A DNA stretch of 64,000 nucleotides. Origin: Clostridia bacterium (GTDB lineage Bacteria; Bacillota; Clostridia; Oscillospirales; Acutalibacteraceae). Where the stretch lies: the NCBI GenBank assembly GCA_017399405.1, contig JAFQCT010000015.1, positions 1 to 64,000 of the forward strand, given 5' to 3'. The position numbers were made by a program, and so were the translations under genes. Positions 20,715-44,420 of this stretch are shown here, piece by piece (position 1 is the first letter of the stretch; the number at the start of each line of letters is the position of its first letter). Below the pieces are notes generated by a model that was not told the origin of the DNA, searched no databases, and worked only from the letters and a program-made list of their open reading frames with translations.

Positions 20715-20764
20715 ATACTAAATATGGTAACTGATTAAAAGTGTTGCCACGGAGGTGTTTTATT

Positions 20765-21478
20765 ATGGAACCAAAATATAAAAGAGTACTCTTGAAAGTC
20801 AGTGGCGAGGTTCTTGCTGGTGACAAAAAGCATGGTTTTGATTTTGACACGGTAAACAGCGTTTGTGCTGCTATTAAGGAAATGGCTGACCTTGGAACAG
20901 AGGTTGCAATTGTTGTTGGTGGTGGCAACTTCTGGCGTGGTCGTTCAAGCGGTGATATGGACAGAACAAGAGCAGACCATATTGGTATGCTTGCAACTGT
21001 TATGAACGCATTAGCACTTGCTGATTCACTTGAACAGATGGGCGTAATCGTTCGTGTTCAAACTGCTATTGAAATGAATAAAATTGCTGAACCATATATC
21101 AGCCACAGAGCAAAGCGTCACCTTGAAAAAGGCAGAGTTGTAATCTTCGGTTGCGGTACAGGTAACCCATTCTTCTCAACTGATACTGCAGCAGCACTTC
21201 GTGCAGCAGAAATTGGTGCTGACATTATCTTCAAAGCAACAAATGTTGATGGTGTTTATGATAAAGACCCTAACAGATTCTCAGATGCAATTAAATATGA
21301 TGTAATTACTCATCAGGATATTTTAAGCAAAGGTCTTGCAGTTATGGATAGTACTGCAGCATCACTTTGTCGTGATAATAACATTCCACTTCTCGTATTT
21401 AATCTTCAACAGCCTGAAAATATGGTTAAGGCGGTTAAAGGCGAAAATGTTGGTACAGTTGTAGTAAGTGAGAAATAA
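20765..21478 (+). CDS. pyrH: Uridylate kinase
   Basis: 237 residues. It has amino-acid-kinase-fold motifs: [14 protein letters not shown] near residue 5, [11 protein letters not shown] near 46, [17 protein letters not shown] near 63 and [14 protein letters not shown] near 155. The enzyme phosphorylates UMP to UDP and is a hexamer in bacteria. ATG 20765 has an ACGGAGGTG site 8 bases upstream; the ORF opens 24 bases earlier. It heads the pyrH-frr-uppS-cdsA-dxr-rseP-ispG-polC run. The usual upstream rpsB-tsf pair is missing here. Confidence 0.95.
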
Positions 21479-21511
21479 TCTGTAATTAAAACATAAAAAG
21501 GAGATAGATTT

Positions 21512-22066
21512 ATGAATACAGTTTTTGATACAATGAAAGAAAAAATGACCAAAACCATCCACGCTCTTGAAAAAGAGTATGCAGGAATGCGTGCAGGCAG
21601 AGCAACCCCTGCAATTCTTGATAAAATTCAGGTTGACTATTATGGTGTACCAACACCAATTCAGCAGATGGCTGCTGTTTCAGTAAGCGAAGGTAGAATT
21701 CTTATTATTCAACCATGGGATGTAAGCACAATCAATCCAATTTCAAAAGCAATTCAGGCTTCTGATATCGGCATTAATCCAATGAATGATGGTAAAGTTA
21801 TCCGTCTTACATTCCCACCTCTCACAGAGGAACGCAGAAAGGCTCTTTGCAAAGATGTAAGTAAAATTGCAGAAGACAGCAAGGTTGCAATCCGTTCAAT
21901 CCGCCGCGATGCAATGGATAAAATCAAGAATATGAAGAAAAACAGTGAAATTACTGAAGATGACCAGAAGAATGCAGAAACAAAAATTCAGAAAATCACT
22001 GACGACTTCATTAAAGAAATCGACACAGTTTCTGACAAAAAAGAAAAAGAGATTATGGAGATATAA
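21512..22066 (+). CDS. frr: Ribosome recycling factor
   Basis: 184 residues, the standard length. It has the signature AGRATPAILDKIQVDYYGVP near residue 28 and the C-terminal helix typical of the three-helix domain. With EF-G it splits post-termination ribosomes. It has an AAAAGGAG ribosome site and lies 33 bases after pyrH. Confidence 0.96.
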   Translation: MNTVFDTMKEKMTKTIHALEKEYAGMRAGRATPAILDKIQVDYYGVPTPIQQMAAVSVSEGRILIIQPWDVSTINPISKAIQASDIGINPMNDGKVIRLTFPPLTEERRKALCKDVSKIAEDSKVAIRSIRRDAMDKIKNMKKNSEITEDDQKNAETKIQKITDDFIKEIDTVSDKKEKEIMEI

Positions 22067-22072
22067 TTGGTT

Positions 22073-22098
22073 TTATGGGCGAGGTGACTCGCCCATAA
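22073..22098 (+). promoter_or_regulatory. Strong hairpin between frr and uppS
   Basis: Eleven-base-pair perfect stem (22073-22083 with 22088-22098) closed by a GTGA tetraloop. Only a short TTT follows, so it is a poor terminator. The only Shine-Dalgarno-like GAGGTGA before uppS is buried in it. Possible roles are mRNA processing, stabilisation or partial attenuation. Confidence 0.55.
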
Positions 22099-22117
22099 TT
22101 TGCCATTATGAATAGTT

Positions 22118-22852
22118 ATGGATAAGAAAAATATACCACAGTTTTCCGTTTTACCACAGCATATCGGCATTATTATGGACGGTAATGGAAGATGGGCAAA
22201 ACAAAGAGATTTACCAAGATATAAAGGTCATATTGAGGGTGCAAAAACATTCCGCAAAATCGGTGAGTTTGCCGCTGATGTGGGAATTAAATGTATGACT
22301 TTCTATGCTTTTTCAACTGAAAACTGGAAAAGACCACAAGAAGAAGTTGACGCTATTATGCAACTTTTCCGCGAATATCTTCGTGAGGCCGAAGAGCGTC
22401 AAGCTGAAAATGAAGAAAAAGGCATTAAACTTTGCTTTTTAGGTGACCGTAAAGGTATTCCTGAAGATATTTTATCTCTTATGGACCAAATTGAAAACGG
22501 TACACAGTATGAGACAAAAGTTATATTAAACCTTGCAATCAATTATGGGGGACGCCACGAAATTACTGAAGGCGTTAAAACGATTGCAAAGAAAGTTAAA
22601 AATGGTGAAATCAGCATTGATGATATTACTGAAGATATGATTTCAGATTCATTATATACAGCAGGCTCACCTGACCCTGACCTTATTATCAGGCCAAGTG
22701 GAGAGTACAGGTTGTCAAATTTCTTGACTTGGCAGTCAGCTTATTCAGAGTTTTGGTTTTCAGATGTGCTCTGGCCTGATTTCACAGAAGAAAATCTAAT
22801 TGAAGCATTGCGAGAGTTTGAAAAGCGTAACAGACGCTTTGGTGGGGTATAA
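22118..22852 (+). CDS. uppS: Isoprenyl (undecaprenyl) diphosphate synthase
   Basis: 244 residues. It has the cis-prenyltransferase motif HIGIIMDGNGRWAKQRDL near residue 14 with the catalytic Asp, TFYAFSTENWKRP near 66, and DLIIRPSGEYRLSNFLTW then SEFWFSDVLWPDF in the last quarter. It makes the C55 carrier used for peptidoglycan and wall polymers. No Shine-Dalgarno sequence precedes ATG 22118, and an in-frame TGA at 22109 rules out an earlier start. Confidence 0.95.
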   Translation: MDKKNIPQFSVLPQHIGIIMDGNGRWAKQRDLPRYKGHIEGAKTFRKIGEFAADVGIKCMTFYAFSTENWKRPQEEVDAIMQLFREYLREAEERQAENEEKGIKLCFLGDRKGIPEDILSLMDQIENGTQYETKVILNLAINYGGRHEITEGVKTIAKKVKNGEISIDDITEDMISDSLYTAGSPDPDLIIRPSGEYRLSNFLTWQSAYSEFWFSDVLWPDFTEENLIEALREFEKRNRRFGGV

Positions 22853-22876
22853 TTTTAGTAAAAGGAAATTTTCGAA

Positions 22877-23743
22877 ATGAAACAACGAATTATTTTTGGA
22901 CTTTTGTGTGTAGGTGCAGGCATTCTTGCACTTTGCATTCGTAACACACCACTTTTTACGGTGATTGGTGCAATAATTTGTGTAATGGTTGCTGTTGAAA
23001 TCAATAAAGCCATTAAACTTAAAAACAAACCTATGTTTGCATTAAGCCTTGTGGTTTCAGCACTTGTTCCCGTTTATTATGAATACGGATATTTGCTTGA
23101 CAGATTACCGCTTGATTTAAGTCCTATTTATCTTATTGCGATTTACATTCTTGCATTGTTTATTTTAATGCTTACAGGCTATGAAAATACAAAATTTTCA
23201 GATGTTGGAATGGTACTTTTAGGCTCATTAGGACTTCCGCTTGCAGTTACGGTGCTTTTGTATTTAAGGGATATTGATAAAATTTTCCCTGAACAAAACT
23301 ATACTACTGAACACGGATTGTTCCTTATCTTGTTTGCAATGTTCTGTGCTTGGATAAGTGATGCGTCTGCATATTTTGGCGGTAGATTTTTCGGCAAACA
23401 TAAATTAGCACCAAAAATCAGCCCCAAAAAGACTATTGAGGGTGTAATCAGCGGTACACTTGGTTGTATTCTTGCAAATGTAATTCTTTATGCAGTGTTT
23501 GATAATCTTGTTTTTGCAGAGCCACATAACAATTACCTTGCAATTATTATAATGTCAATTCCGTTATCACTTATTGGTGTTTGTGGTGATTTGACATTCT
23601 CAGCACTCAAGCGTAATTATGAAATCAAAGACTTTAGCAATCTTGTTCCAGGTCACGGTGGCGTTATGGACAGATTTGACAGTGAAGTGTTTGTGCTTGT
23701 GGCACTTTATGCGATTATCAATATTTTCGGAGTAGTGATTTGA
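22877..23743 (+). CDS. cdsA: Phosphatidate cytidylyltransferase
   Basis: 288 residues, about eight hydrophobic helices. It has the CDS signature near the C-terminus (SALKRNYEIKDFSNLVPGHG then GVMDRFDSE) and SDASAYFGGRFFGKHKLAPK near 160. It makes CDP-diacylglycerol for phospholipid synthesis. AAAGGAAA is the ribosome site. The stop shares bases with the dxr start (TGATG). Confidence 0.93.
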   Translation: MKQRIIFGLLCVGAGILALCIRNTPLFTVIGAIICVMVAVEINKAIKLKNKPMFALSLVVSALVPVYYEYGYLLDRLPLDLSPIYLIAIYILALFILMLTGYENTKFSDVGMVLLGSLGLPLAVTVLLYLRDIDKIFPEQNYTTEHGLFLILFAMFCAWISDASAYFGGRFFGKHKLAPKISPKKTIEGVISGTLGCILANVILYAVFDNLVFAEPHNNYLAIIIMSIPLSLIGVCGDLTFSALKRNYEIKDFSNLVPGHGGVMDRFDSEVFVLVALYAIINIFGVVI

Positions 23744-24900
23744 TGATTACTAAAAATTTAAGTATATTAGGCTCAACCGGTTCAATCGGTACTCAAAGCC
23801 TTGAAACAGCAAGAAAGTGCGGTTACTCTGTTTCCGCGCTTTCGGCATATTCTAATGTAGATTTAATTGAAGAACAAATTCGCGAATTTAAGCCGAAAAT
23901 GGCGGCTTTAGTTGATGAAAATGCCGCAAAAGAACTTAAAAATCGCGTAAGTGATTTAGATGTAACTGTGCTTTCGGGTATAGAGGGCGTTTGCGAATGT
24001 GCAATAGTAGAAAGTGCAGATACAGTAATTAACTCAGTTGTTGGTATGGCAGGTCTTAAACCTACTCTCGCAGCAATTGAAAGTGATAAAAAAATTGCCC
24101 TTGCCAATAAAGAAACTCTTGTTGCGGGTGGACTTATAGTTACAACTAACGCAAAGGCAAAAGGTGTTGACATTTTACCTGTTGATTCAGAACATTCTGC
24201 AATTTTCCAATGCTTACAAGGTCAACCTACAAATCGTGCATTAAAAAGAATCATTTTAACTGCAAGTGGCGGGCCATTCTTCGGCAAAACAAAAGAAGAA
24301 TTAGAAAAAGTAACTGTTGCAGATGCACTTAAACACCCAAATTGGAGTATGGGACAAAAAATAACCATTGACTCTGCTACAATGATGAATAAGGGGCTTG
24401 AACTTATTGAGGCTGTTTGGCTTTTCAATGTTCATCCGTCAAAAATTGAGATTGTGGTTCACAGAGAAAGTATAATTCATTCCGCAGTTGAATATACCGA
24501 TAATGCAGTTATTGCACAGTTAGGGCTTCCTGATATGAAAATCCCTATTCAGTATGCACTCACATATCCTGAAAGAATAGAATCTCTTACAGGTGAATTG
24601 GATTTGACAAAATTGGGAACACTAACATTCTATAAACCCGATTATGACACTTTCAAGTGTATGAACATTTGTCGTGAGGCAATTAGTCGTGGCGGTCTTT
24701 ATCCTGCATTCGCAAACAGTGCAAACGAGCAGGCGAACTTAATGTTCCGTCAGGGTAAAATCGGTTTCTTAGAAATCGGCGAACTTGTTGAGCGTGTTAT
24801 GAATGACGCTCCAAAGGTAGATACATATACAGTTGACGATGTATATAATGCCGACATTGAAGCAAGAAATTTAGTAATCAAGTATTCAGGAAAGCAGTGA
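23743..24900 (+). CDS. dxr: 1-deoxy-D-xylulose 5-phosphate reductoisomerase
   Basis: About 385 residues. It has the NADPH-binding ILGSTGSIGTQSLE at the N-terminus, ALANKETLVAGG near 125 and LPVDSEHSAIFQ with the metal-binding acids near 147. The substrate-binding helix is KHPNWSMGQKITIDSATMMN, followed by MNKGLELIEA. It is the committed step of the MEP isoprenoid pathway; ispG lies two genes downstream. ATG 23743 overlaps the cdsA stop. Confidence 0.95.
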   Translation: MITKNLSILGSTGSIGTQSLETARKCGYSVSALSAYSNVDLIEEQIREFKPKMAALVDENAAKELKNRVSDLDVTVLSGIEGVCECAIVESADTVINSVVGMAGLKPTLAAIESDKKIALANKETLVAGGLIVTTNAKAKGVDILPVDSEHSAIFQCLQGQPTNRALKRIILTASGGPFFGKTKEELEKVTVADALKHPNWSMGQKITIDSATMMNKGLELIEAVWLFNVHPSKIEIVVHRESIIHSAVEYTDNAVIAQLGLPDMKIPIQYALTYPERIESLTGELDLTKLGTLTFYKPDYDTFKCMNICREAISRGGLYPAFANSANEQANLMFRQGKIGFLEIGELVERVMNDAPKVDTYTVDDVYNADIEARNLVIKYSGKQ

Positions 24901-24904
24901 TTTT

Positions 24905-25963
24905 TTGGAACTCTGGTCTAAAATCTGGCCATTTTTAGTAGCCATCTTATTTTTCGGACTTTTAATTTCAATTCACGAGTTAGGTCATTTTACTTTTGCA
25001 AAACTTTTTAAGGTAAAAATAAATGAGTTTTCACTCGGTATGGGCCCCGCAATTTTCAAAAAGAAGAGGGGTGAAACTCTTTACGCACTTCGCTTACTTC
25101 CGATTGGCGGTTATGTAAGTATGGAGGGTGAAGACGAAGAAAGTCAAGATGAAAATGCCTTTAACCGTAAAAAAGTATGGCAGAAAATTATAATAGTTGC
25201 CGCAGGTGCAATTATGAATTTAATACTCGGTGTTGTGATTGTTGCAACTGTGCTTTCAATGGAAGATTTAATCGGCACAAACCAGATTTTAGAGTTTCAC
25301 GAGGGTGCAATAAGTCAACAAACAGGCCTTGAAGTAGGCGATGAATTCCTTGAAATTGACGGTCACAGAGTTTTCTCTGATACGGATATTTCATTTCTTA
25401 TGGGACGCAGTGATGACGGTGTTTTCGATATGGTTGTCCGCAGAGACGGTAAAGAAGTTGAACTTAAAGATGTAACTTTCAAAACCGAGAAAGATGGCAA
25501 ATACACATTCATTACTTACGATTTTGTAATATTAGGTGAAGAAACAAACTTTATAAATATTGTTGAAAACTCATTCAAACGGTCTGCTTCAATTGCACGG
25601 CTTGTATGGTTAAGTTTTTTTGATTTAATTACGGGTAGATATGGGCTTACTGATTTGTCAGGTCCCGTAGGCACAGTTAATGTTATTGCAGATGCGGCAG
25701 CCGGTGCGATTGAGAGTAAAGATGGTCTTATAACAGCACTTACAATGATGGCGTTTATCTCAATAAATATTGGTGTGTTTAATCTTTTGCCATTACCTGC
25801 ACTTGATGGTGGCAGACTCTTTTTCCTTGTAATTGAGGGCATACGCAGAAAACCTATTAACCCTAAATATGAGGGTTATGTGCACGGTGCAGGACTTGCA
25901 CTTTTATTGCTTTTAATGTTGGTTGTAACTTTTAATGATATTGTGACACTTGTTAAAAATTAG
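24905..25963 (+). CDS. rseP: Site-2 membrane metalloprotease (RseP/RasP, M50)
   Basis: 352 residues. The zinc motif HELGH lies at about 24-28 inside the first membrane helix, a PDZ domain at about 115-190, and the second metal site in NLLPLPALDGGR near 297, followed by the last membrane helices. It cleaves membrane-embedded anti-sigma factors and signal-peptide remnants. The first codon is TTG with a poor ribosome site, and no in-frame ATG occurs before the zinc motif, so a non-ATG start is needed. Confidence 0.93.
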   Translation: MELWSKIWPFLVAILFFGLLISIHELGHFTFAKLFKVKINEFSLGMGPAIFKKKRGETLYALRLLPIGGYVSMEGEDEESQDENAFNRKKVWQKIIIVAAGAIMNLILGVVIVATVLSMEDLIGTNQILEFHEGAISQQTGLEVGDEFLEIDGHRVFSDTDISFLMGRSDDGVFDMVVRRDGKEVELKDVTFKTEKDGKYTFITYDFVILGEETNFINIVENSFKRSASIARLVWLSFFDLITGRYGLTDLSGPVGTVNVIADAAAGAIESKDGLITALTMMAFISINIGVFNLLPLPALDGGRLFFLVIEGIRRKPINPKYEGYVHGAGLALLLLLMLVVTFNDIVTLVKN

Positions 25964-25973
25964 GTGATTAAAA

Positions 25974-27026
25974 ATGATTGAAAGAAGAAAAAGTCGCGTT
26001 GTAACAGCGGGCAATGTTAAAATTGGCGGTAATAATCCTATTTCCGTTCAATCAATGCTTAATGTAGTAGCGGAAGATGCAGAAGGTAATGTAAGACAAG
26101 CTGTAGAGTTAGAAAAAGCAGGTTGCCAGATTATCCGTCTTACTGTGCCGAACAAAGAGGCTGTTAAAACTCTTTATGCAGTAAAAAACGCTGTTAATAT
26201 TCCTGTTGTTGCTGATATTCATTTTGATTACCGTTGTGCTTTAGAAAGCGTTGCGGCGGGTGCTGATAAAATCAGAATAAACCCCGGCAATATCGGTGAT
26301 GATGAGAAAGTGAGAGCAGTTGCTGACGCTTGTCGTCTTCACAATGTGCCAATCCGTATTGGTGTAAATTCAGGCTCACTTGAAAAGAATTTACTTGCAA
26401 AGTATGGTTCACCAACACCTGAAGCTATGCGAGACAGTGCGATGTATCATATCGGGCTTTTAGAAAAGTTTGATTTTAACGATATTGTTGTGTCAATTAA
26501 ATCATCAGATGTTCAGAAAATGGTTAAAGCATATCGTCTTGTAGCAGATATGTGTGATTATCCGTTACATTTAGGTGTAACTGAAGCAGGCACTCACAAT
26601 ATGGCACTTGTAAAATCAAGTATCGGTATCGGCTCACTTCTTCTTGATGGTATAGGGGATACAATCCGTGTTTCAATGACTGCTGACCCTGTAACAGAGG
26701 TTAAGGCAGGTTATGACATTCTTAAAGGCGCAGGCATTAAAACTGACTGTGCACAAATTGTATCTTGCCCAACTTGTGGCAGAACAAAAATTGATTTAAT
26801 CGGACTTGCAGAAAAAGTAGAAAAAGCACTTACAAACTACAATAAGCCTATAAAAGTTGCAGTTATGGGGTGTGTTGTGAATGGCCCCGGTGAAGCAAAA
26901 GAGGCTGACATTGGTGTTGCAGGTGGCGACGGTTGTGGCGTAATTTTCAAAAATGGCGAAGTGCTTAAAAAGGTAAGCGAAAATGAAATAGTAGACGAAT
27001 TATTGAAAGAAATAGAAAAAATATAG
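25974..27026 (+). CDS. ispG: 4-hydroxy-3-methylbut-2-en-1-yl diphosphate synthase
   Basis: 350 residues. It has the TIM-barrel start RRKSRVVTAGNVKIGGNNPI, VADIHFDYR near 82, and the 4Fe-4S cysteines in SCPTCGRTK near 266 and MGCVVNGPGEAKEADIGVAG near 301. It performs the penultimate MEP-pathway step. Preceded by AGGTGA, 10 bases after rseP. Confidence 0.95.
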   Translation: MIERRKSRVVTAGNVKIGGNNPISVQSMLNVVAEDAEGNVRQAVELEKAGCQIIRLTVPNKEAVKTLYAVKNAVNIPVVADIHFDYRCALESVAAGADKIRINPGNIGDDEKVRAVADACRLHNVPIRIGVNSGSLEKNLLAKYGSPTPEAMRDSAMYHIGLLEKFDFNDIVVSIKSSDVQKMVKAYRLVADMCDYPLHLGVTEAGTHNMALVKSSIGIGSLLLDGIGDTIRVSMTADPVTEVKAGYDILKGAGIKTDCAQIVSCPTCGRTKIDLIGLAEKVEKALTNYNKPIKVAVMGCVVNGPGEAKEADIGVAGGDGCGVIFKNGEVLKKVSENEIVDELLKEIEKI

Positions 27027-27040
27027 TGGTGTAAATACAT

Positions 27041-30000
27041 ATGACAACAGTAAAAACACTTTTTGGTGAGTTTTTTGACTGTAAAAACAATCTTGATTTC
27101 GGGGTTGCAGAAATCGTAAACTTTGCAATTTCAAGAGAAAAAAACAGGGCAGAACTTACCATAAAGCCATACAGAATAATTGAACAAGACAGAATAAAAG
27201 CCTTTGAAAAAACACTTTCAAGGGCTACAAATGTTAATATAAAAATAATCTGTGATGAGTCAAGAAAAGGCTTTACAACAGAATATGCAAATATGGTTAT
27301 TGAAATTTTAAGAGACCGTGTTGCAGTTGCAAACGGATATTTCAATAACGCAGACTATAAGATTGAAAACGGAGAGTTCAAAATCCTTCTTAAAAAAGGT
27401 GGTAAAGATATTCTTCGTGCATCAAATGTTGACGATGAAATTGCAAAAATTATAAGAGAGATTTTTGGTATTAACCTTGAGGTAACTTTCCATCAACAAG
27501 ATTTTGATGTTGAAATAGCACTTGACTCAATGCAAAAACAGATGGAAGAAATGCATAATCGACAGGTTATTGAAGAAAATCCACAAGCAGCAGTTACAAG
27601 AAGTGAGGGCAAAACTCATATAGTAAAAGAGGGTATTCCTCTTTACCTTGAAACACAAAAGGCGATTTATGGTAATATTATAAGAACATCAAAACTTCAA
27701 AAACTTTGTGATATTTCAATTGAAAGCGGTGCGGTAGCAGTTTGGGGTGAGATTTTCTCGCTTGATGTACGCACTACCCGTGACGGAAGAAATAATATTA
27801 TCAACTTTAATATTACAGATAAAACATACTCATATACAGTTAAAATCTTTGAGACAGTTGCAAATGCAAAATCATTTCTTGGTGCGTTAAAAGAGGGCGA
27901 AACAGTAATCGTTTACGGTAAAGTTAGTTACGATAAATATTCAGGTGAGAATATTATCTCTGCAACTTCTGTGAATACTGTTAAACCTATTAAGAAACAA
28001 GATAACGCAGAAGTTAAGCGTGTTGAACTTCACTTGCACACAAATATGTCTGAAATGGACGGTATGACCTCTGCCGACAAACTTGTTAAACGAGCAATCA
28101 GTTGGGGGCATAGTGCTATTGCAATTACTGACCACGGTGTAGCACAAGGCTATCCTGACGCAGTAAAAGGCAAGGGTAAAGACGATATTAAACTGATTTT
28201 TGGTATTGAGGGTTATCTTATTGACGATATTGGCGATAAAGAAACCCCTTGGGAAAAACTTCCCCGTTATCATATTATTTTGCTTGTGCAGAATAAAACG
28301 GGCCTTAAAAATCTTTATAAACTTATTTCACTTTCTCATACAACATATTTTCACACAAGACCGTGTATTCCTCGTTCAAAGCTTAATGAGCATCGTGAGG
28401 GTATAATATTAGGCTCGGCTTGTGAAGCGGGTGAGCTTATTAAAGCAATCCTTTTTGAGAAAAGTGATGAAGAAATCTTAAAAATTGCCGATTATTATGA
28501 TTATCTTGAAATTCAACCAGATGGCAACAATATGTTTATGATTGACTCTCATTCTGACCCGAATGCTAAAAATCCTGACAGAAATAAAGAGTATAATCGT
28601 ATTAAAAATCTTGAAGATATCCGCGATATCAACCGTAAGATTATACATATTGGCGACAAGTTAAATAAACTTGTATGTGCTACGGGGGATGTTCACTTTA
28701 TGGACCCTGAAGATGCAAGTTTTCGTGCTATTCTTATGGCGGGTAAAGGTTTTGATGATGCCGATAATCAAGCACCTCTTTACTTTAGAACAACTGAAGA
28801 AATGCTTAAAGAGTTTGCATATCTCGGCGAAGATACCGCTTATGAAGTAGTTGTCACAAATACAAATAAAATTGCAGATATGATTGAGCAGGTAACCCCT
28901 ATTCCACCGGGAACATTTAACCCGACAATCCCCGGTGCTGAACAAGAACTTCGTGACATTTGCTGGGCAAAAGCAAAAGAATGGTATGGTGACCCTGTAC
29001 CTGAATATGTAGCTGAGCGTCTTGAAATGGAACTTGAATCCATTATTAAACACGGTTTCGCTGTGCTTTATATTATCGCACAAAAACTTGTTTGGGATTC
29101 AGAGGCTCACGGTTATCATGTAGGTTCCCGTGGTTCTGTTGGCTCGTCCTTTGTTGCTACAATGGCGGGTATTTCAGAGGTTAACCCTCTTGCAGCACAC
29201 TATCGTTGTGCAAAGTGTAAGCATAGTGAATTCTTCTTGCACGGTGAATACGGTTCAGGCTTTGATATGCCACCAAAGAACTGTCCTCATTGCGATATTC
29301 CTATGATTCGTGACGGTCACGAAATACCTTTCCAAACTTTCCTTGGTTTCCACGGTGATAAAGCACCTGATATCGACCTTAATTTCTCGGGCGATTATCA
29401 GGGCAAAGCACATAGATATACTGAAGAATTGTTCGGTCGTGACCATGTGTTCAAAGCGGGTACAATCGCAACAGTTGCCGATAAAACTGCTTATGGTTAT
29501 GTAAAAAAATATCTTGAAGAGCGTGGCAAAATTGTAACTCGTGCCGAAGAAGACCGACTTACAAAAGGTTGCACAGGTATTAAGCGTACAACAGGTCAGC
29601 ACCCCGGCGGTATGGTTGTTGTGCCTAACGAATTTGATGTTTATGACTTTACTGCAGTGCAATTCCCTGCAAATAAAGTTGGTTCAGATATGGAAACAAC
29701 TCACTTTGATTTCCATTTCTTGCACGATACAATTCTTAAACTTGATATTCTCGGCCATGATGTGCCCACCCTTTATAAACACCTTGAAGATATGACGGGA
29801 ATCAATGTTATGGATGTTGATGTGTGCGACCCTAAAATTGTTAGTCTTTGCACAAGTCCTGAAGCGTTGGGACTTACTCCTGACGATATTGGCGTTGAGA
29901 CAGGTACACTTTCGATTCCTGAAATGGGTACAGATTTTGTTCGTGGTATGCTTACAGAAGCACAGCCTAAAAAATTCTCTGACCTTTTACAGATTTCAGG

Positions 30001-30832
30001 TCTTTCACACGGTACTGATGTATGGCTTGGAAACGCACAAGAACTTATTAAAAATGGCACTTGCACAATTTCAGAAGTTATTGGTACCCGTGACGATATT
30101 ATGACTTATCTTATCCATAAAGGGCTTGATTCAAGTCTTGCATTTAAGATTATGGAGCTTACAAGAAAAGGTATTGTTGCAAAGACAGGATTCCCTGAGG
30201 GCGCAGAAGATGCAATGAAAGCGTGTGGGGTTCCCGATTGGTATATGGATTCTTGTCGTAAAATCAAGTATATGTTCCCTAAAGCTCACGCGGCAGCCTA
30301 TGTTATTGCGGCACTTCGTCTTGGTTGGTACAAGATTTATAAGCCAACAGAATATTATACCGCATTCTTAACTGTTCGTGGTGGTGACCTTGACGCTGTA
30401 ACTGTAGTACAAGGCAGAGACGCAGTTAAACGCAAAATGGTTGAGCTTCACGGTCCGCTTAACGCAGAACCGAAAGACAGAAAACCAATGACAACAAAAG
30501 AGCAAGACCAGTTTACTGCACTTCAAGTTGTAAATGAAATGATGGCTCGTGGCGTTGAACTTTTGCCTGTCGATATTTACAAGTCAAGGTCAACAGAATA
30601 TTTTATTGAAGACGGAAAAATCAGAATGCCATTCTCAGCACTTTCAGGTGTTGGCGAAAACGCTGCAAAATCTATTGTGGCTGGGCGTGATGAGTGTGGT
30701 GCGGATTTCGTTTCAATTGACGATTTCCAAGCAAAAACAGGTGCGTCAAGTGCTGTTGTTACTGCACTTAAAGAAATCGGTGCATTAGACGACCTTCCTG
30801 AAACTGCACAAATCTCATTCTTTGGTTTTTAG
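27041..30832 (+). CDS. polC: DNA polymerase III alpha subunit, PolC type, lacking the exonuclease domain
   Basis: 1263 residues, against about 1430-1450 for family members I know. In order: an N-terminal domain and OB fold (1-325), the PHP domain beginning VELHLHTNMSEMDG (331), polymerase with a CxxC...CPHC zinc module near 727-757, catalytic PDIDLNFSGDYQ with Asp777 and Asp779, and the usual C-terminal end ALDDLPETAQISFFGF. Canonical PolC has a DnaQ-like exonuclease (FDVETTGL motif) inserted in PHP. Here the PHP sequence runs straight from FGIEGYLIDD (387-396) to YHIILLVQNKTGLKNLYKL (410-428) with only about 13 residues between and no DEDD motif anywhere. The frame is open throughout, so this is a clean domain loss, not a pseudogene. 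Confidence 0.95.
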   Translation: MTTVKTLFGEFFDCKNNLDFGVAEIVNFAISREKNRAELTIKPYRIIEQDRIKAFEKTLSRATNVNIKIICDESRKGFTTEYANMVIEILRDRVAVANGYFNNADYKIENGEFKILLKKGGKDILRASNVDDEIAKIIREIFGINLEVTFHQQDFDVEIALDSMQKQMEEMHNRQVIEENPQAAVTRSEGKTHIVKEGIPLYLETQKAIYGNIIRTSKLQKLCDISIESGAVAVWGEIFSLDVRTTRDGRNNIINFNITDKTYSYTVKIFETVANAKSFLGALKEGETVIVYGKVSYDKYSGENIISATSVNTVKPIKKQDNAEVKRVELHLHTNMSEMDGMTSADKLVKRAISWGHSAIAITDHGVAQGYPDAVKGKGKDDIKLIFGIEGYLIDDIGDKETPWEKLPRYHIILLVQNKTGLKNLYKLISLSHTTYFHTRPCIPRSKLNEHREGIILGSACEAGELIKAILFEKSDEEILKIADYYDYLEIQPDGNNMFMIDSHSDPNAKNPDRNKEYNRIKNLEDIRDINRKIIHIGDKLNKLVCATGDVHFMDPEDASFRAILMAGKGFDDADNQAPLYFRTTEEMLKEFAYLGEDTAYEVVVTNTNKIADMIEQVTPIPPGTFNPTIPGAEQELRDICWAKAKEWYGDPVPEYVAERLEMELESIIKHGFAVLYIIAQKLVWDSEAHGYHVGSRGSVGSSFVATMAGISEVNPLAAHYRCAKCKHSEFFLHGEYGSGFDMPPKNCPHCDIPMIRDGHEIPFQTFLGFHGDKAPDIDLNFSGDYQGKAHRYTEELFGRDHVFKAGTIATVADKTAYGYVKKYLEERGKIVTRAEEDRLTKGCTGIKRTTGQHPGGMVVVPNEFDVYDFTAVQFPANKVGSDMETTHFDFHFLHDTILKLDILGHDVPTLYKHLEDMTGINVMDVDVCDPKIVSLCTSPEALGLTPDDIGVETGTLSIPEMGTDFVRGMLTEAQPKKFSDLLQISGLSHGTDVWLGNAQELIKNGTCTISEVIGTRDDIMTYLIHKGLDSSLAFKIMELTRKGIVAKTGFPEGAEDAMKACGVPDWYMDSCRKIKYMFPKAHAAAYVIAALRLGWYKIYKPTEYYTAFLTVRGGDLDAVTVVQGRDAVKRKMVELHGPLNAEPKDRKPMTTKEQDQFTALQVVNEMMARGVELLPVDIYKSRSTEYFIEDGKIRMPFSALSGVGENAAKSIVAGRDECGADFVSIDDFQAKTGASSAVVTALKEIGALDDLPETAQISFFGF

Positions 30833-39419: not shown

Positions 39420-42113
39420 TTATGCTTTTTTCTTTGCAATTGCTCTTTGGATTGCTTTGATGATTTCAACAATTGGGATAATCAAGAATGCAAGTCCAAG
39501 AGAGATTGAATATTCAACAAGTGAAAGTTCTGTGAATTCAAACATATTTGCAAGGAATGGAACTTCAACAACTGCTGTTGTAAGAAGAAATGAACCAATC
39601 ATAGCACCGTAAAGAGCTACATTATGGTGTCCCTTAAAGAGCATTGCAACTGCTGAGCCACGCTGTGAACGCATATTGAATGAATGGAAGATTTCACACA
39701 TAGCCATTGTGAAAAATGCCATTGTCATACCGTCTGCACTGTCTTGAATGTTATAGAAAGCAAGGTGACCTGTTTCAATGAACTCACCAATATAGAAAGC
39801 AGTAATTGTAAGAATAGAAACAATAATACCCTGATATGCACAGTCAAAACCGAGACCGCCTGAGAATACACCGTCATTCTTACTTCTTGGTTTTCTTCTC
39901 ATAATATCGTCTTCAGGTTTTTCAAGACCGAGTGCAAGTGCTGGGAAGCAGTCTGTTACAAGGTTAATAAAGAGCAAGTGAGGAGCTCTTAAAATTGTAA
40001 AGTTCATAATTGTTGCAAAGAAGATTGAAACAACTTCTGAAAGGTTTGAGCCGAGAAGGAACTGAATTGCTTTACGAATGTTATCGTAAATTCTTCTACC
40101 TTCACCAACTGCAGAAACGATTGTTGCAAAGTTATCGTCAGCAAGAACCATATCAGCAACATTCTTTGTAACATCAGTACCTGTAATACCCATACCAACG
40201 CCGATATCTGCACTCTTGATAGATGGAGCGTCGTTAACACCGTCACCTGTCATAGCAGTAACATAGCCCTTGTTTCTCCAAGCGTTAACAATTCTTGTTT
40301 TGTGTTCAGGCTGAACACGAGCATAAACGCAGATGTTTTCAACGATTTTCTCAAATTCTTCATCTGTATATTTATCAATGTCAGCACCCATCATAGCCTG
40401 ACTATCATCTGTAAGAATACCAAGTTCGCGAGCAATTGCTTTTGCTGTGTTGATATGGTCACCTGTAATCATAATAGGCTTGATACCAGCACCACGACAT
40501 TCAACAATAGCATCTTTAACTTCAGGACGAACAGGGTCAATCATACCTGTAAGACCAATGAAAGTCATATCAAATTCAAGTGCTTCTGATTCATAAACTG
40601 ATGGTTCTGCATCATAAGTCTTATATGCAACTGCAAATACACGAAGAGCTTTGTTACCCATTCTTGTATTTTCTTCCATAATCTTTGCACGGATTTCATC
40701 ATTCATTTCGAAGATTTCACCGTTAATGTCAGCGTGTGTACACTTTTTAAGGATTTCGTCAGGAGCACCCTTTGTGAACTGAACAAAACCTGCACCTTGC
40801 TTATGAACTGTTGACATCATCTTTCTTCCTGAGTCGAAAGGAACTTCGCCAACACGAGGATATTTTTCAACGAGTGATGCTTTTGGAAGATTAAGAGTCT
40901 GAGCATAGTTGATAAGAGCAACTTCGTCAGGCTCGCCTGTGCCTTTGCCATTTTCATCAACTTCAGCATTAGTGCAAAGTGCCATTGCTGTTGCCAACTG
41001 TTCTTCGTTAGGAGCATAGTGGTCAACAACTGTCATAACATTTTGTGTAAGAGTACCTGTCTTGTCAGAGCAGATAATCTGAGTACAACCAAGTGTTTCA
41101 ACTGCTGTCATTTTACGAATAATCGCATTTTTCTTTGACATATTTGTAACGCCAATAGAAAGAACGATTGTCATAACTGCAACAAGACCTTCAGGAATTG
41201 CCGCAACAGCAAGTGCGATAGCTGCAATAAATGAATGGAGAGCAACATCAAAATATTCTGTACTGCCACCAATAATAATCTTTGAAATAATGTTGTATGC
41301 AAAGATAACTACGCAAACACCAATAACAAGTTTTGTAAGCACCTTTGAAAGCTGTTCAAGTTTGATTTCAAGAGGAGTTTTGCCTTCTTCAGCAAGTGTA
41401 ATGGCATTGGCAATTTTACCCATTTCAGTATCCATACCGGTAGCAACTACAACTGCTTTACCACGACCGTATACAAGAGTTGAGCCCATATATGCCATAT
41501 TCTTACGGTCACCGAGAGCTACTTCGTCACTGTCGTTTTTACCCATAAGTGCATTTACAAGTTTTGTAACAGGAACAGACTCACCAGTAAGTGCAGCTTC
41601 CTCAATTTTCATACTTGCACACTCAAAAATACGACAGTCTGCAGGAATAGCGTCACCTGCGTCAAGAAGAATAACATCACCTACAACTAAATCTTCGCTC
41701 TTAACAACTTCAACTTTGCCATCACGAAGAACTTTAGTTGTTGCGGCAGACATTTTCTGCAACGCTTCAACTGCCTTTTCCGCTTTGCTTTCCTGAATAA
41801 CACCAAGAACTGCGTTGATAAGGACAACTACAAGAATGATGATTGAATCAGTTGGCACATACATACCTGTACTAGGGTCGTGCTCAATAAACTCTGTTAC
41901 AGCAGAAATAACAGCCGCAACAAGCAAGATGATAATCATCGGGTCCTTTAACTGGTCAATAAAGCGTGAGAACATTGAAACTTTTTTAGCTTCAGCCAAC
42001 TTGTTTTTGCCGTTTTGTGCAAGTCTTTTTTCAGCCTCTGCTGATGAAAGACCTTCCGGTTTACTGTTGACTGCCTCAAAAACTTCATCAACCGAATGGA
42101 GATAATGTTTCAT
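39420..42113 (-). CDS. P2-type cation-transporting ATPase, probably Mn2+/Ca2+ exporter
   Basis: 897 residues with the full P-type layout: N-terminal actuator region, TGESVPV near 180, an IPEGL membrane motif near 307, phosphorylation site ICSDKTGTLTQN near 349, hinge TGDGVNDAPS near 622 and about ten membrane helices. The cation_ATPase_N and C domains match the SERCA/PMCA-like group annotated as calcium ATPases. A yybP-ykoY manganese riboswitch directly upstream suggests that Mn2+ export is at least one job, as for the riboswitch-controlled P-type ATPase of Lactococcus. Start MKHYLHSVDEVF has an AGAGGTG site. Confidence 0.92.
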   Translation of the reverse strand: MKHYLHSVDEVFEAVNSKPEGLSSAEAEKRLAQNGKNKLAEAKKVSMFSRFIDQLKDPMIIILLVAAVISAVTEFIEHDPSTGMYVPTDSIIILVVVLINAVLGVIQESKAEKAVEALQKMSAATTKVLRDGKVEVVKSEDLVVGDVILLDAGDAIPADCRIFECASMKIEEAALTGESVPVTKLVNALMGKNDSDEVALGDRKNMAYMGSTLVYGRGKAVVVATGMDTEMGKIANAITLAEEGKTPLEIKLEQLSKVLTKLVIGVCVVIFAYNIISKIIIGGSTEYFDVALHSFIAAIALAVAAIPEGLVAVMTIVLSIGVTNMSKKNAIIRKMTAVETLGCTQIICSDKTGTLTQNVMTVVDHYAPNEEQLATAMALCTNAEVDENGKGTGEPDEVALINYAQTLNLPKASLVEKYPRVGEVPFDSGRKMMSTVHKQGAGFVQFTKGAPDEILKKCTHADINGEIFEMNDEIRAKIMEENTRMGNKALRVFAVAYKTYDAEPSVYESEALEFDMTFIGLTGMIDPVRPEVKDAIVECRGAGIKPIMITGDHINTAKAIARELGILTDDSQAMMGADIDKYTDEEFEKIVENICVYARVQPEHKTRIVNAWRNKGYVTAMTGDGVNDAPSIKSADIGVGMGITGTDVTKNVADMVLADDNFATIVSAVGEGRRIYDNIRKAIQFLLGSNLSEVVSIFFATIMNFTILRAPHLLFINLVTDCFPALALGLEKPEDDIMRRKPRSKNDGVFSGGLGFDCAYQGIIVSILTITAFYIGEFIETGHLAFYNIQDSADGMTMAFFTMAMCEIFHSFNMRSQRGSAVAMLFKGHHNVALYGAMIGSFLLTTAVVEVPFLANMFEFTELSLVEYSISLGLAFLIIPIVEIIKAIQRAIAKKKA

Positions 42114-42398: not shown

Positions 42399-44420
42399 TT
42401 ATTCTTCTCTTTTCTTAATTGTTGCCACAATGCCAACACCAGATGCGATTGCTACTGCTGCTGCAACTACGATTGATGCTCCTGCAACTGTGTCAGGAAT
42501 ATCACTGTCGTCGACATTACCGTTTGTATCTGCATTTGTATCGTTATCTGTATTGTCTGTATTGTTATCAGTATCAGTGCCTGTATCTGTGTCAGGTGTC
42601 GTATCAGGAGTTGTGTCAGTGTTTCCGCTATCGCCACCAATTCCACCGCCAATAATACCTTCAACAACATCGCCTAAGCCACTTAAAATACCATCAAGAG
42701 CACCACTTTCAACATCTGTTGTCTGTACTGTGCCAAAATTGTTTGTAAGGAAAATTGCGCGTCTTGTTGAGAAATCCTTTACAAAGTCAACATCTACATT
42801 CCATTCTGATTTAATTGAGTCAATATTAGTTGTTCCGTAAATGTTCCAACGAATTGCGTTTGCAACTGCTGAACCTTCAATTTTATCAGCATAAGCGTCA
42901 ATACCTGACTCATTCATTACATTGAGAACATCAAGAATTTCATTGTCCCATACATTTTTAACACCTGCAACGAAATCTTCTTTCTGGCAAAGAGCGTTAA
43001 AGAGTGTTGGCACTTTCTTGATATCTGCCTGACCAAAAATAGTATTCTTATACTGTCTGCCGAAGCATACTGTAAATTCTTCAGGGTTCATATAATTGCA
43101 ACCATAACGGTCGTTCTCATTGTTGCCAAGTCCGATATCAAAATCCCAAACAGGACCTGCATAAAGTTTGTCGTCTCCTTGTGGTTTGTACATATAAGTA
43201 CTTGTAAGACCACAGTCCATATTTGATGCCCATTCGTTAATTGCATAGAATTTTTGGAATGTTTCAGCGTTACAAAGTTCTGTATAATAGTCGCCATTAG
43301 CATTATAACCGTCTTCTGACATTACAGCATCTTCAAAATTCTGATAAATACCACTGATATACTTAACTTCGCTTTCAGTTGCGTATTCAGGATTTTTGAA
43401 AATTACAGGCTGACCACCATTTGATACAAAACCTGAAATTTCACTGTCATATCTGTCAGCAATTTCCATTTCCATAAGGTATCCGCCTGAGATATCTGCA
43501 GGGTCATTAGGAATTTCAACCCATTTTTGAGTGCCTTCCATAAGTCCTGAATACTGACCACGAGTACCTGCTAATTCAAGTGATTCAATATCAACATCCG
43601 GATTTGCATCTTCATTTGCATCATCAAGATTGTCAATTTCAACACGATTGTCATCAACCTCAACTCTTGTAGTGAGAATGAATGAACCCATATAATCGTT
43701 GTTGATATAAAGGTCAACAGGTGTATACTTTGGAGTATAATCAAGCACTTCACCTGCTACAGAATAAATGATAGCATTTCTCATAAGAGTTGTATCGCCA
43801 TGGTTAGCAATTAAGCTCCACTTTTTGCTTTTCCCCATACCAAAAAGGTCTGCTTTTTTATCGAGTTTAATATTGTATGGCTTTTTCTCCATTTTCCATG
43901 TTGAATTGCCACGACCTTTAATATATTCAAGGTCACCATTATACTCGTATGTGAAACCATCTTCACCAATCACCTGAATATAGCCTGCTTCTTTGTGTTC
44001 CTTGTCAGCATAAATTGCATCAAGACTACCTGATTCAGTTGTAATGAATACAGACGCAAGCTCAGTTTCGGCAATAATTTTAACATTGTAAGTTTTTGCA
44101 CCGCAAGAAACAGAAATTGATGATTTACCGGCAAGTGAAACCATTCCACCATTCTGCACCTTATAACCATCGATTGTAACATCACCATCTGCTACAAAAG
44201 ACACTCTGCAAAGTGCAGTGCTGATTGATGTAGGTATGAAAAGATAATAATTACCATCGTCCGCTAAAAACCATTCAACTGTTGGAACAGTTTCTTCTGT
44301 GAAAGAAATAGCAGAAACAGAAAAACTGTCAATTGTGTCTTCTGTTGCTGCAAAACCAATCATTGAGGTTGATGCGAATATTACAACAAAAGCCAGAATA
44401 AAAGCAAGAGCCTTTTTCAT
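42399..44420 (-). CDS. Secreted CotH-family protein with C-terminal membrane anchor
   Basis: 673 residues. A signal peptide (MKKALAFILAFVVIFASTS, cleavage near AFA) is followed by a beta-rich domain to about 150 and a CotH kinase-like domain from about 165: YIKGRGNSTWKMEKKPYNIK, MRNAIIYSVAG and GPVWDFDIGLG near 400, where WDxD should bind metal. Then comes a Gly/Asp/Thr-rich low-complexity stretch (TPDTTPDTDTGTDTDNN, about 588-630) and a final IPDTVAG, hydrophobic helix and KKREE tail that resembles a cell-wall-sorting signal without a clear LPXTG. CotH proteins of Bacillus spores phosphorylate coat proteins; Clostridial relatives often sit on the cell surface. Confidence 0.8.
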   Translation of the reverse strand: MKKALAFILAFVVIFASTSMIGFAATEDTIDSFSVSAISFTEETVPTVEWFLADDGNYYLFIPTSISTALCRVSFVADGDVTIDGYKVQNGGMVSLAGKSSISVSCGAKTYNVKIIAETELASVFITTESGSLDAIYADKEHKEAGYIQVIGEDGFTYEYNGDLEYIKGRGNSTWKMEKKPYNIKLDKKADLFGMGKSKKWSLIANHGDTTLMRNAIIYSVAGEVLDYTPKYTPVDLYINNDYMGSFILTTRVEVDDNRVEIDNLDDANEDANPDVDIESLELAGTRGQYSGLMEGTQKWVEIPNDPADISGGYLMEMEIADRYDSEISGFVSNGGQPVIFKNPEYATESEVKYISGIYQNFEDAVMSEDGYNANGDYYTELCNAETFQKFYAINEWASNMDCGLTSTYMYKPQGDDKLYAGPVWDFDIGLGNNENDRYGCNYMNPEEFTVCFGRQYKNTIFGQADIKKVPTLFNALCQKEDFVAGVKNVWDNEILDVLNVMNESGIDAYADKIEGSAVANAIRWNIYGTTNIDSIKSEWNVDVDFVKDFSTRRAIFLTNNFGTVQTTDVESGALDGILSGLGDVVEGIIGGGIGGDSGNTDTTPDTTPDTDTGTDTDNNTDNTDNDTNADTNGNVDDSDIPDTVAGASIVVAAAVAIASGVGIVATIKKREE

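What the first reader, a model, noticed from the sequence alone, without database searches (positions are those of the whole stretch)
27041..30832. PolC without its proofreading exonuclease domain
The PHP domain of this 1263-residue PolC is continuous where family members carry a DnaQ-like exonuclease of about 170-180 residues. The length deficit equals that domain, and no DEDD exonuclease motif (FDVETTGL-like) is seen anywhere. The polymerase aspartates (777, 779), zinc module and normal C-terminus are intact, so the gene is not broken. If real, the main replicase depends on a separate exonuclease for fidelity, or this lineage has an elevated mutation rate.
Basis: partly seen in the sequence, partly recalled or inferred. 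Interest (0 to 1): 0.75.

Follow-up and report, generated by a model that had tools for sequence, protein, structure and literature searches.

The report
PolC polymerase missing its DnaQ-like exonuclease
This Clostridia-type bacterium makes a replicative DNA polymerase that lacks its usual built-in proofreading domain; the variant was already known, but it appears to have arisen many times and to keep a second, metal-based proofreading site intact, which makes an old question about how these bacteria copy DNA accurately testable.

Summary
The 1263-residue PolC at 27041-30832 has a continuous PHP domain. A 20-residue loop (residues 391-410) sits where exonuclease-bearing relatives mostly carry about 200-220 residues. 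No hidden exonuclease was found by Pfam or profile-profile comparison, and no second PolC in the genome. A relative 89% identical (residues 1-640) and a second species of the genus share the architecture, so it is not an assembly error.

The variant is not new: Timinskas 2014 reported 6% of PolCs without the exonuclease, in Clostridia and Negativicutes. Added here: (1) about 15 or more losses on a 183-row PolC tree, with both flanks of the insertion site kept; (2) all nine PHP metal ligands intact in 97 of 97 exonuclease-less PolCs; (3) a loop of DnaE length, and Asp at residue 550 where two solved Bacilli PolCs have Asn; (4) the only RNase_T-family exonuclease found in this genome is a KapD-like protein of a size class no rarer beside exonuclease-bearing PolC, so no obvious substitute.

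Best explanation: redundant proofreaders in PolC+DnaE1 Clostridia let the DnaQ domain be lost, and the PHP site proofreads. Activity is not shown; mutation rate was not tested.

The parts
27041..30832 (+). polC, PolC-type DNA polymerase III alpha subunit, 1263 aa, without the inserted DnaQ-like exonuclease
27041..27640 (+). residues 1-200: PolC N-terminal domains (NI/NII-like)
   Evidence: PF11490 at 82-184 E 6.6e-8; PF14480 only below its cut-off (E 0.15); N-terminal alignment matches that of exonuclease-bearing PolCs, hhalign 100%
27692..27994 (+). residues 218-318: OB domain
   Evidence: PF01336 242-311; OB folds in the structure comparison
28013..28927 (+). residues 325-629: continuous PHP domain; nine metal ligands H331 H333 D340 H365 E390 H411 C461 D550 H552 all present
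28211..28270 (+). residues 391-410: 20-residue loop where the exonuclease is inserted in other PolCs; its ends resemble the flanks of the insert (YLIDD ... EKLPRYH)
28943..30169 (+). residues 635-1043: Pol3 core (palm, thumb, fingers)
   Evidence: PF07733 and PF17657
29207..29296 (+). residues 723-752: four-cysteine zinc module
   Evidence: CAKCKH 723-728, CPHCD 748-752; zinc binding recalled
29369..29377 (+). catalytic aspartates D777 and D779 (PDIDLNF)
   Evidence: aligned with 3f2b and 9qpc
30551..30799 (+). helix-hairpin-helix domain
   Evidence: PF14579 1171-1253
30809..30823 (+). C-terminal QISFF, a sliding-clamp-binding type motif (motif recalled)
20741..27026 (+). upstream genes by Pfam: amino acid kinase (likely pyrH), frr, uppS, cytidylyltransferase (cdsA-type), dxr, M50 protease (rseP-type), ispG: a neighbourhood usual for polC (recalled), so probably the native polC locus

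Best explanation
This is an orthologous, apparently working PolC, probably at its native locus, from which the DnaQ-like exonuclease, normally inserted in a loop of the PHP domain, was deleted in evolution, leaving a 20-residue loop with traces of both flanks. Clostridia with PolC+DnaE1 carry redundant proofreaders (PHP of PolC, DnaQ domain of PolC, PHP of DnaE1), so the DnaQ domain can be lost and has been lost many times. In such PolCs the PHP domain, with its full nine-ligand metal site and a loop now about as short as in DnaE-type polymerases, most likely does the 3'-5' proofreading; DnaE1 and mismatch repair back it up. Shown: absence of the domain, flank-like loop ends, repeated change of state on trees, intact ligands, loop length, no exonuclease family searched that tracks the loss. 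Inferred: that changes were losses, that the PHP site is catalytically active, and that it edits PolC's own errors.
For: Bimodal loop length: 97 exonuclease-less rows 10-43 aa, 86 others 150-327. All nine ligands (HHDHEHCDH) in 97 of 97 exonuclease-less PolCs. D550 is Asp here, while two solved PolCs (Geobacillus 3f2b, E. faecium 9qpc) have Asn (GNVH); PMC5636811 (passages) says one ligand is mutated in G. kaustophilus PolC, which shows no exonuclease activity, that mutation of D226 inactivates the M. tuberculosis PHP exonuclease, and that the PolC exonuclease is inserted into a loop beside the PHP site (18 residues in Taq, 29 in Mtb); that D226 equals D550 is my inference. This genome's DnaE loop is also 20 (19-21 in 75 family DnaEs). 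Repeated change: 23 changes, at least 15 forced by starred branches (183-row FastTree); counted as losses only 25, or 15 with weak branches collapsed; one exonuclease-less clade rejected within the family, AU p 0.0002; 9 changes on a separate DnaE tree. Exonuclease-less loops printed (21 rows) look like the flanks of the insert. Four insert-bearing PolCs (L177, L133, L114, L192) lack the exonuclease motifs, possible intermediates. In G022 the DnaE has a decayed PHP (HHNDERYNY) while its exonuclease-less PolC (L028) keeps all nine ligands. Own genome: one PF00929, no PF13482, no PF01612.
Against: No activity was measured. Intact PHP ligands are nearly as common among insert-bearing Clostridia PolCs (83 of 86; one of the three exceptions is only truncated), so intactness does not by itself tie PHP to exonuclease loss. 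The Asp/Asn contrast rests on two Bacilli structures, and PMC3919608 (section 19) says all nine positions are strongly conserved in PolC as a group. Exonuclease-less PolC evolves slightly faster relative to DnaE (mean ratio 0.749, 28 genomes, against 0.702, 23 genomes; not tree-corrected), which also fits relaxed constraint. 7 of 33 exonuclease-less genomes have a further DnaQ-like protein besides the 280-320 aa class, against 2 to 4 of 41 with insert-bearing PolC and 3 of 8 PolC-less ones, so compensation in trans in some lineages is not excluded. The KapD-like protein cannot be excluded as a proofreader.
Confidence: 0.6

Rival explanations
1. DnaE1 is the real replicase in these bacteria; PolC has a minor role, has lost proofreading under relaxed selection, and is on its way out.
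For: Within the family, 18 of 120 sampled genomes gave no convincing PolC match, 8 of them at least 90% complete. Eight PolC-less genomes form one clade (support 100) grouped with exonuclease-less G018, G040 and G047 (support 92) on the DnaE tree. 18 of 97 exonuclease-less PolC frames have under 300 residues before the PHP domain. Slightly faster PolC evolution. PMC3919608 raises the idea that DnaE1 may normally replicate the genome (passage).
Against: All PHP ligands remain intact in 97 of 97 exonuclease-less PolCs, and in this one the polymerase aspartates, zinc module and clamp motif too; G022 shows the opposite, a decayed DnaE PHP beside an intact PolC PHP. Only one well-supported PolC-loss clade; the three other PolC-less rows on the tree are less complete or fragmented assemblies (75-91% complete).
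Confidence: 0.2
2. A separate DEDD exonuclease, the 292-aa KapD-like protein, acts in trans as an epsilon-like proofreader.
For: It is the only PF00929 protein found in the genome and its domain is related to the PolC exonuclease (52 bits to NF001688 positions 424-592). In B. subtilis the PolC exonuclease can serve DnaE in trans (PMC12926913, passage).
Against: Frames of that size class occur in 36 of 41 insert-bearing, 23 of 33 exonuclease-less and 8 of 8 PolC-less genomes searched, so they do not track the loss; 9 of 33 exonuclease-less genomes have no PF00929 hit. None of the five NCBIfam models it hits reaches its cut-off (best KapD, 74 bits, cut-off 169). Size class only; orthology was not tested.
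Confidence: 0.08
3. PolC errors go unproofread by PolC itself; DnaE1's PHP site and MutS mismatch repair suffice, or the lineage is a tolerated mutator.
For: DnaE PHP ligands intact in this genome and in 29 of 31 exonuclease-less genomes compared, one of the other two being truncated; mutS1 present. That losing proofreading can be costly: in B. subtilis a PolC exonuclease mutation together with a deficient mutL raised mutation about 6000-fold (PMC11890065, passage).
Against: Persistence over many lineages and 97 of 97 retained PHP sites argue against a permanent mutator (inference); there are no mutation-rate data.
Confidence: 0.12

Closest known systems
Exonuclease-less PolC of Clostridia/Negativicutes (Timinskas et al. 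2014, PMC3919608; passages and section 19 seen)
   Same: PolC without the Exo insertion, paired with a DnaE; reported in 6% of PolCs, exclusively Clostridia and Negativicutes apart from one extra Thermotogae copy
   Different: In the passages seen, the number of origins, the loop ends and the PHP status of these variants in particular are not given; these are added here
Canonical PolC (E. faecium 9qpc; B. subtilis)
   Same: OB, PHP, Pol3, zinc module, HhH and clamp motif; NTD by profile
   Different: Lacks the DnaQ-like exonuclease; PHP ligand 8 is Asp (D550) where 9qpc has Asn
G. kaustophilus PolC crystal construct (3f2b/3f2c)
   Same: One continuous match over residues 222-1261; its exonuclease was removed for crystallisation (PMC12592400, passage)
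   Different: Engineered; one PHP ligand mutated and no exonuclease activity (PMC5636811, passage)
PHP-proofreading DnaE1 (M. tuberculosis 7pu7/5lew; Taq 2hpi)
   Different: PolC-type, not DnaE; exonuclease activity not shown

Membership tests
PolC-type DNA polymerase III alpha | PolC-specific profile above curated cut-off | tested here: met
   NF001688 1477 against 873 bits, TIGR01405 1335 against 1043
PolC-type DNA polymerase III alpha | OB domain N-terminal to PHP, and PolC N-terminal domain | tested here: met
   Pfam OB 242-311, NII 82-184; hhalign of N-termini 100%
PolC-type DNA polymerase III alpha | Zinc-module cysteines and palm aspartates | tested here: met
   Cys pairs in 723-728 and 748-752, D777, D779
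PolC-type DNA polymerase III alpha | DnaQ-like exonuclease inserted in PHP (called a hallmark in PMC3919608, but lacking in 6% of the PolCs filed there, so usual rather than required) | tested here: not met
   20-residue loop, no exonuclease
Exonuclease-less PolC variant (Timinskas 2014) | PHP without the Exo insertion | tested here: met
Exonuclease-less PolC variant (Timinskas 2014) | In Clostridia or Negativicutes, paired with DnaE1 | tested here: met
   nearest named record found is a Clostridia MAG (L036); DnaE present, NF005298 1667 bits over cut-off 1260 and intact PHP ligands; the window's own taxon is not named and the DnaE1/DnaE3 split was not tested by a tree
PHP-exonuclease proofreader (DnaE1 type) | Nine metal ligands HHDHEH[C/H]DH | tested here: met
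PHP-exonuclease proofreader (DnaE1 type) | PHP fold with short loop beside the site | tested here: met
PHP-exonuclease proofreader (DnaE1 type) | Zn-dependent 3'-5' exonuclease activity | not testable with these tools
   needs purified protein
KapD-type stand-alone exonuclease as replacement | Presence tracks loss of the PolC exonuclease | tested here: not met
   36 of 41 with an insert, 23 of 33 without, by frame size only

The most novel reading that the evidence does not exclude
In PolC+DnaE1 Clostridia the well-known PolC exonuclease is a dispensable module: it has been deleted independently about 15 times or more, each time leaving a PolC whose own PHP metal site, in an architecture equivalent to DnaE1, is the working proofreader; in at least one lineage this was a step towards losing PolC altogether.
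Probability: 0.45. Interest if true: 0.62.

Novelty: new member of a known kind. Interest (0 to 1): 0.42.

Why it matters
How Clostridia with two apparently complete replicases share synthesis and proofreading had no experimentally characterised example when PMC3919608 was written (passage). Repeated natural deletion of the exonuclease, with the PHP ligands kept in every case examined here, gives ready-made comparisons: related species with and without the domain, PolC-less relatives, and one genome (G022) in which, of the two polymerases, only PolC keeps an intact PHP site. It may also bear on PolC as a drug target, since many relatives lack a domain present in the full-length enzyme solved so far.

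Tried and rejected
Hidden or diverged exonuclease in the N-terminus or PHP: rejected. Assembly error or frameshift: rejected. Second polC in the genome: none found. Single origin of the exonuclease-less state: rejected inside the family (AU p 0.0002, LG+G4 quick tree; the four outgroup rows did not form one side of a branch). Caveats: the 183-row tree is FastTree with weak deep branches and long rows, and it warned that long branches meet at L071/L185; change counts cannot tell gain from loss, and loss is inferred from the shared insertion site and the flank-like loop ends. Genome shrinkage as the cause: exonuclease-less genomes are smaller (median 1.88 against 2.42 Mb), but the 8 independent pairs, about 4 of them informative, are too few to show an association. 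Structure: residues 1-640 modelled with pLDDT 85.9, pTM 0.64; among the 50 rows shown by VIA I saw no DnaQ-type exonuclease fold apart from PolC chains and alpha-epsilon chimeras matched by their PHP part, which is not proof of absence. Ligand geometry could not be measured (no coordinates in the box). Seven fragmentary PolC loci (L055, L078, L080, L084, L091, L106, L113) were dropped before the counts; L028 (G022) was left out of the family PolC tree and G022 out of the rate comparison as fast-evolving. The class sorting rows was mine, by match continuity and frame length; some contig-edge fragments (for example G023, G019, G089) stayed unsorted. The exonuclease motif pattern missed two rows (L111, L185) that look intact by eye. 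Searches for print: (2 papers; 25 of 49 listed; 20 of 26 listed; 10 of 68 listed), all in open-licence PMC full text; by titles and abstract starts I saw no paper on repeated loss of the PolC exonuclease. Most subscription papers are not held.
Full report
The gene. ORF 27041..30832 (+) encodes 1263 residues. It scores far above both NCBIfam PolC cut-offs and lies behind genes that match, by Pfam, an amino acid kinase (likely pyrH), frr, uppS, a cytidylyltransferase (cdsA-type), dxr, an M50 protease (rseP-type) and ispG, a neighbourhood usual for polC (recalled). Its genome (G000, 1.96 Mb, 97.5% complete) has one other family-C polymerase found, a DnaE with all nine PHP ligands, and mutS1.

How widespread. 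I classed 33 of 120 sampled genomes of the same family as exonuclease-less, and 18 of 120 gave no convincing PolC, 8 of those at least 90% complete; most others have insert-bearing PolC and some are contig-edge fragments.

Repeated loss. I compared 183 PolCs out of 190 loci with a PolC match (7 fragments dropped): 97 have 10-43 residues between ligands E390 and H411, 86 have 150-327. Of the 86, 80 have all three DEDD motifs by pattern, two more by eye, and four (L177, L133, L114, L192) lack them. On a FastTree of the core without the loop, the state changes at least 23 times, 15 of them forced by well-supported branches; counted as losses only, 25 or, with weak branches collapsed, 15. Inside the window's family an IQ-TREE of 57 family rows plus 4 others rejects a single exonuclease-less clade (AU p 0.0002; 7 changes among the family rows), and a separate DnaE tree of 77 genomes needs 9 changes. 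The 21 exonuclease-less loops I printed start and end much like the flanks of the insert in 15 insert-bearing PolCs (YFVND/YLIDD at the start, often KKLPxYH-like at the end), so I read these as deletions rather than an ancestral gap (inference).

What proofreads. PMC5636811 (passages) describes a nine-ligand trinuclear zinc PHP exonuclease in M. tuberculosis DnaE1, says mutation of D23 or D226 inactivates it, that G. kaustophilus PolC has one ligand mutated and shows no exonuclease activity, and that the PolC exonuclease sits in a loop next to this site. In the window's PolC all nine ligands are present, as in 97 of 97 exonuclease-less PolCs. At ligand 8 the window has Asp (D550) where the two solved Bacilli PolCs have Asn. 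The loop is 20 residues, the same as in this genome's DnaE (20; 19-21 in 75 family DnaEs). Hence the PHP site is the best candidate proofreader. Limits: 83 of 86 insert-bearing Clostridia PolCs also keep all nine ligands, so within Clostridia the comparison does not discriminate, and PMC3919608 (section 19) calls the nine positions strongly conserved in PolC as a group, so the Asn may not hold for all Bacilli. The reading agrees with PMC12926913 (section 14), which says Clostridia mostly have three active proofreaders and that PHP of PolC is often inactive in PolC+DnaE3 systems.

Rivals. A stand-alone exonuclease: the only PF00929 protein found (292 aa, KapD-like) belongs to a size class common to the compared groups, and 9 of 33 exonuclease-less genomes have no PF00929 hit; own-genome searches for PF13482 and PF01612 were empty. 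7 of 33 exonuclease-less genomes have a further DnaQ-like protein against 2 to 4 of 41 with insert-bearing PolC and 3 of 8 PolC-less ones, so trans compensation elsewhere is possible. Decline of PolC: eight PolC-less genomes form a clade grouped with exonuclease-less ones, and exonuclease-less PolC evolves slightly faster, but its PHP ligands stay intact and G022 shows decay of DnaE's PHP instead. Genome size could not be tied to the loss on independent pairs, which were too few.

Known or new. PMC3919608 (passages and section 19) reported exonuclease-less PolC in 6% of PolCs, exclusively in Clostridia and Negativicutes apart from one Thermotogae copy. The window's protein is a new member of that kind. 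Many origins, flank-like loop ends, the intact PHP ligands with a DnaE-like loop, and the neighbouring PolC-less clade are what this work adds; in four literature searches I saw no listed title or abstract start making these points.

Noticed in passing
L071:5089-8721: Exonuclease-less PolC with intact PHP ligands on a contig labelled Candidatus Goldiibacteriota (JAOAAI010000171.1), outside the phyla where PMC3919608 found PolC; horizontal transfer or a mis-binned contig.
   Followed up: partly
L272 (G022, DnaE) and L028 (G022, PolC): In a 1.1 Mb family genome the DnaE has lost most PHP ligands (HHNDERYNY), has a frame of only 1025 aa and a very long branch, while its exonuclease-less PolC keeps all nine PHP ligands: DnaE3-like decay inside this family.
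   Followed up: partly
L185 (G375): The reverse case: a PolC with an intact-looking DEDD exonuclease and a decayed PHP site (EHDTESGSR).
   Followed up: no
L177, L133, L114, L192: PolCs with an insert at the exonuclease site whose catalytic motifs were not found; possible intermediates before deletion.
   Followed up: partly
L244, L250, L254, L265, L266, L269, L270, L271: 8 of 11 family genomes without a PolC match have DnaE frames of 1207 aa or more, against 3 of 66 PolC-bearing ones (stop-to-stop frames).
   Followed up: no
G365:C2:30817-31470: A 756-aa open frame with a continuous PolC-like PHP (47% identity) in a genome that also has an exonuclease-bearing PolC (L190).
   Followed up: no
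L150, L153, L154, L022, L139 and others: 18 of 97 exonuclease-less PolC frames have under 300 residues before the PHP domain, suggesting loss of part of the N-terminal domains as well (at least L052 is cut by its contig end).
   Followed up: no
window 42399-44420 (-): CotH kinase-family protein of 673 aa beside a P-type cation ATPase (39420-42113).
   Followed up: no
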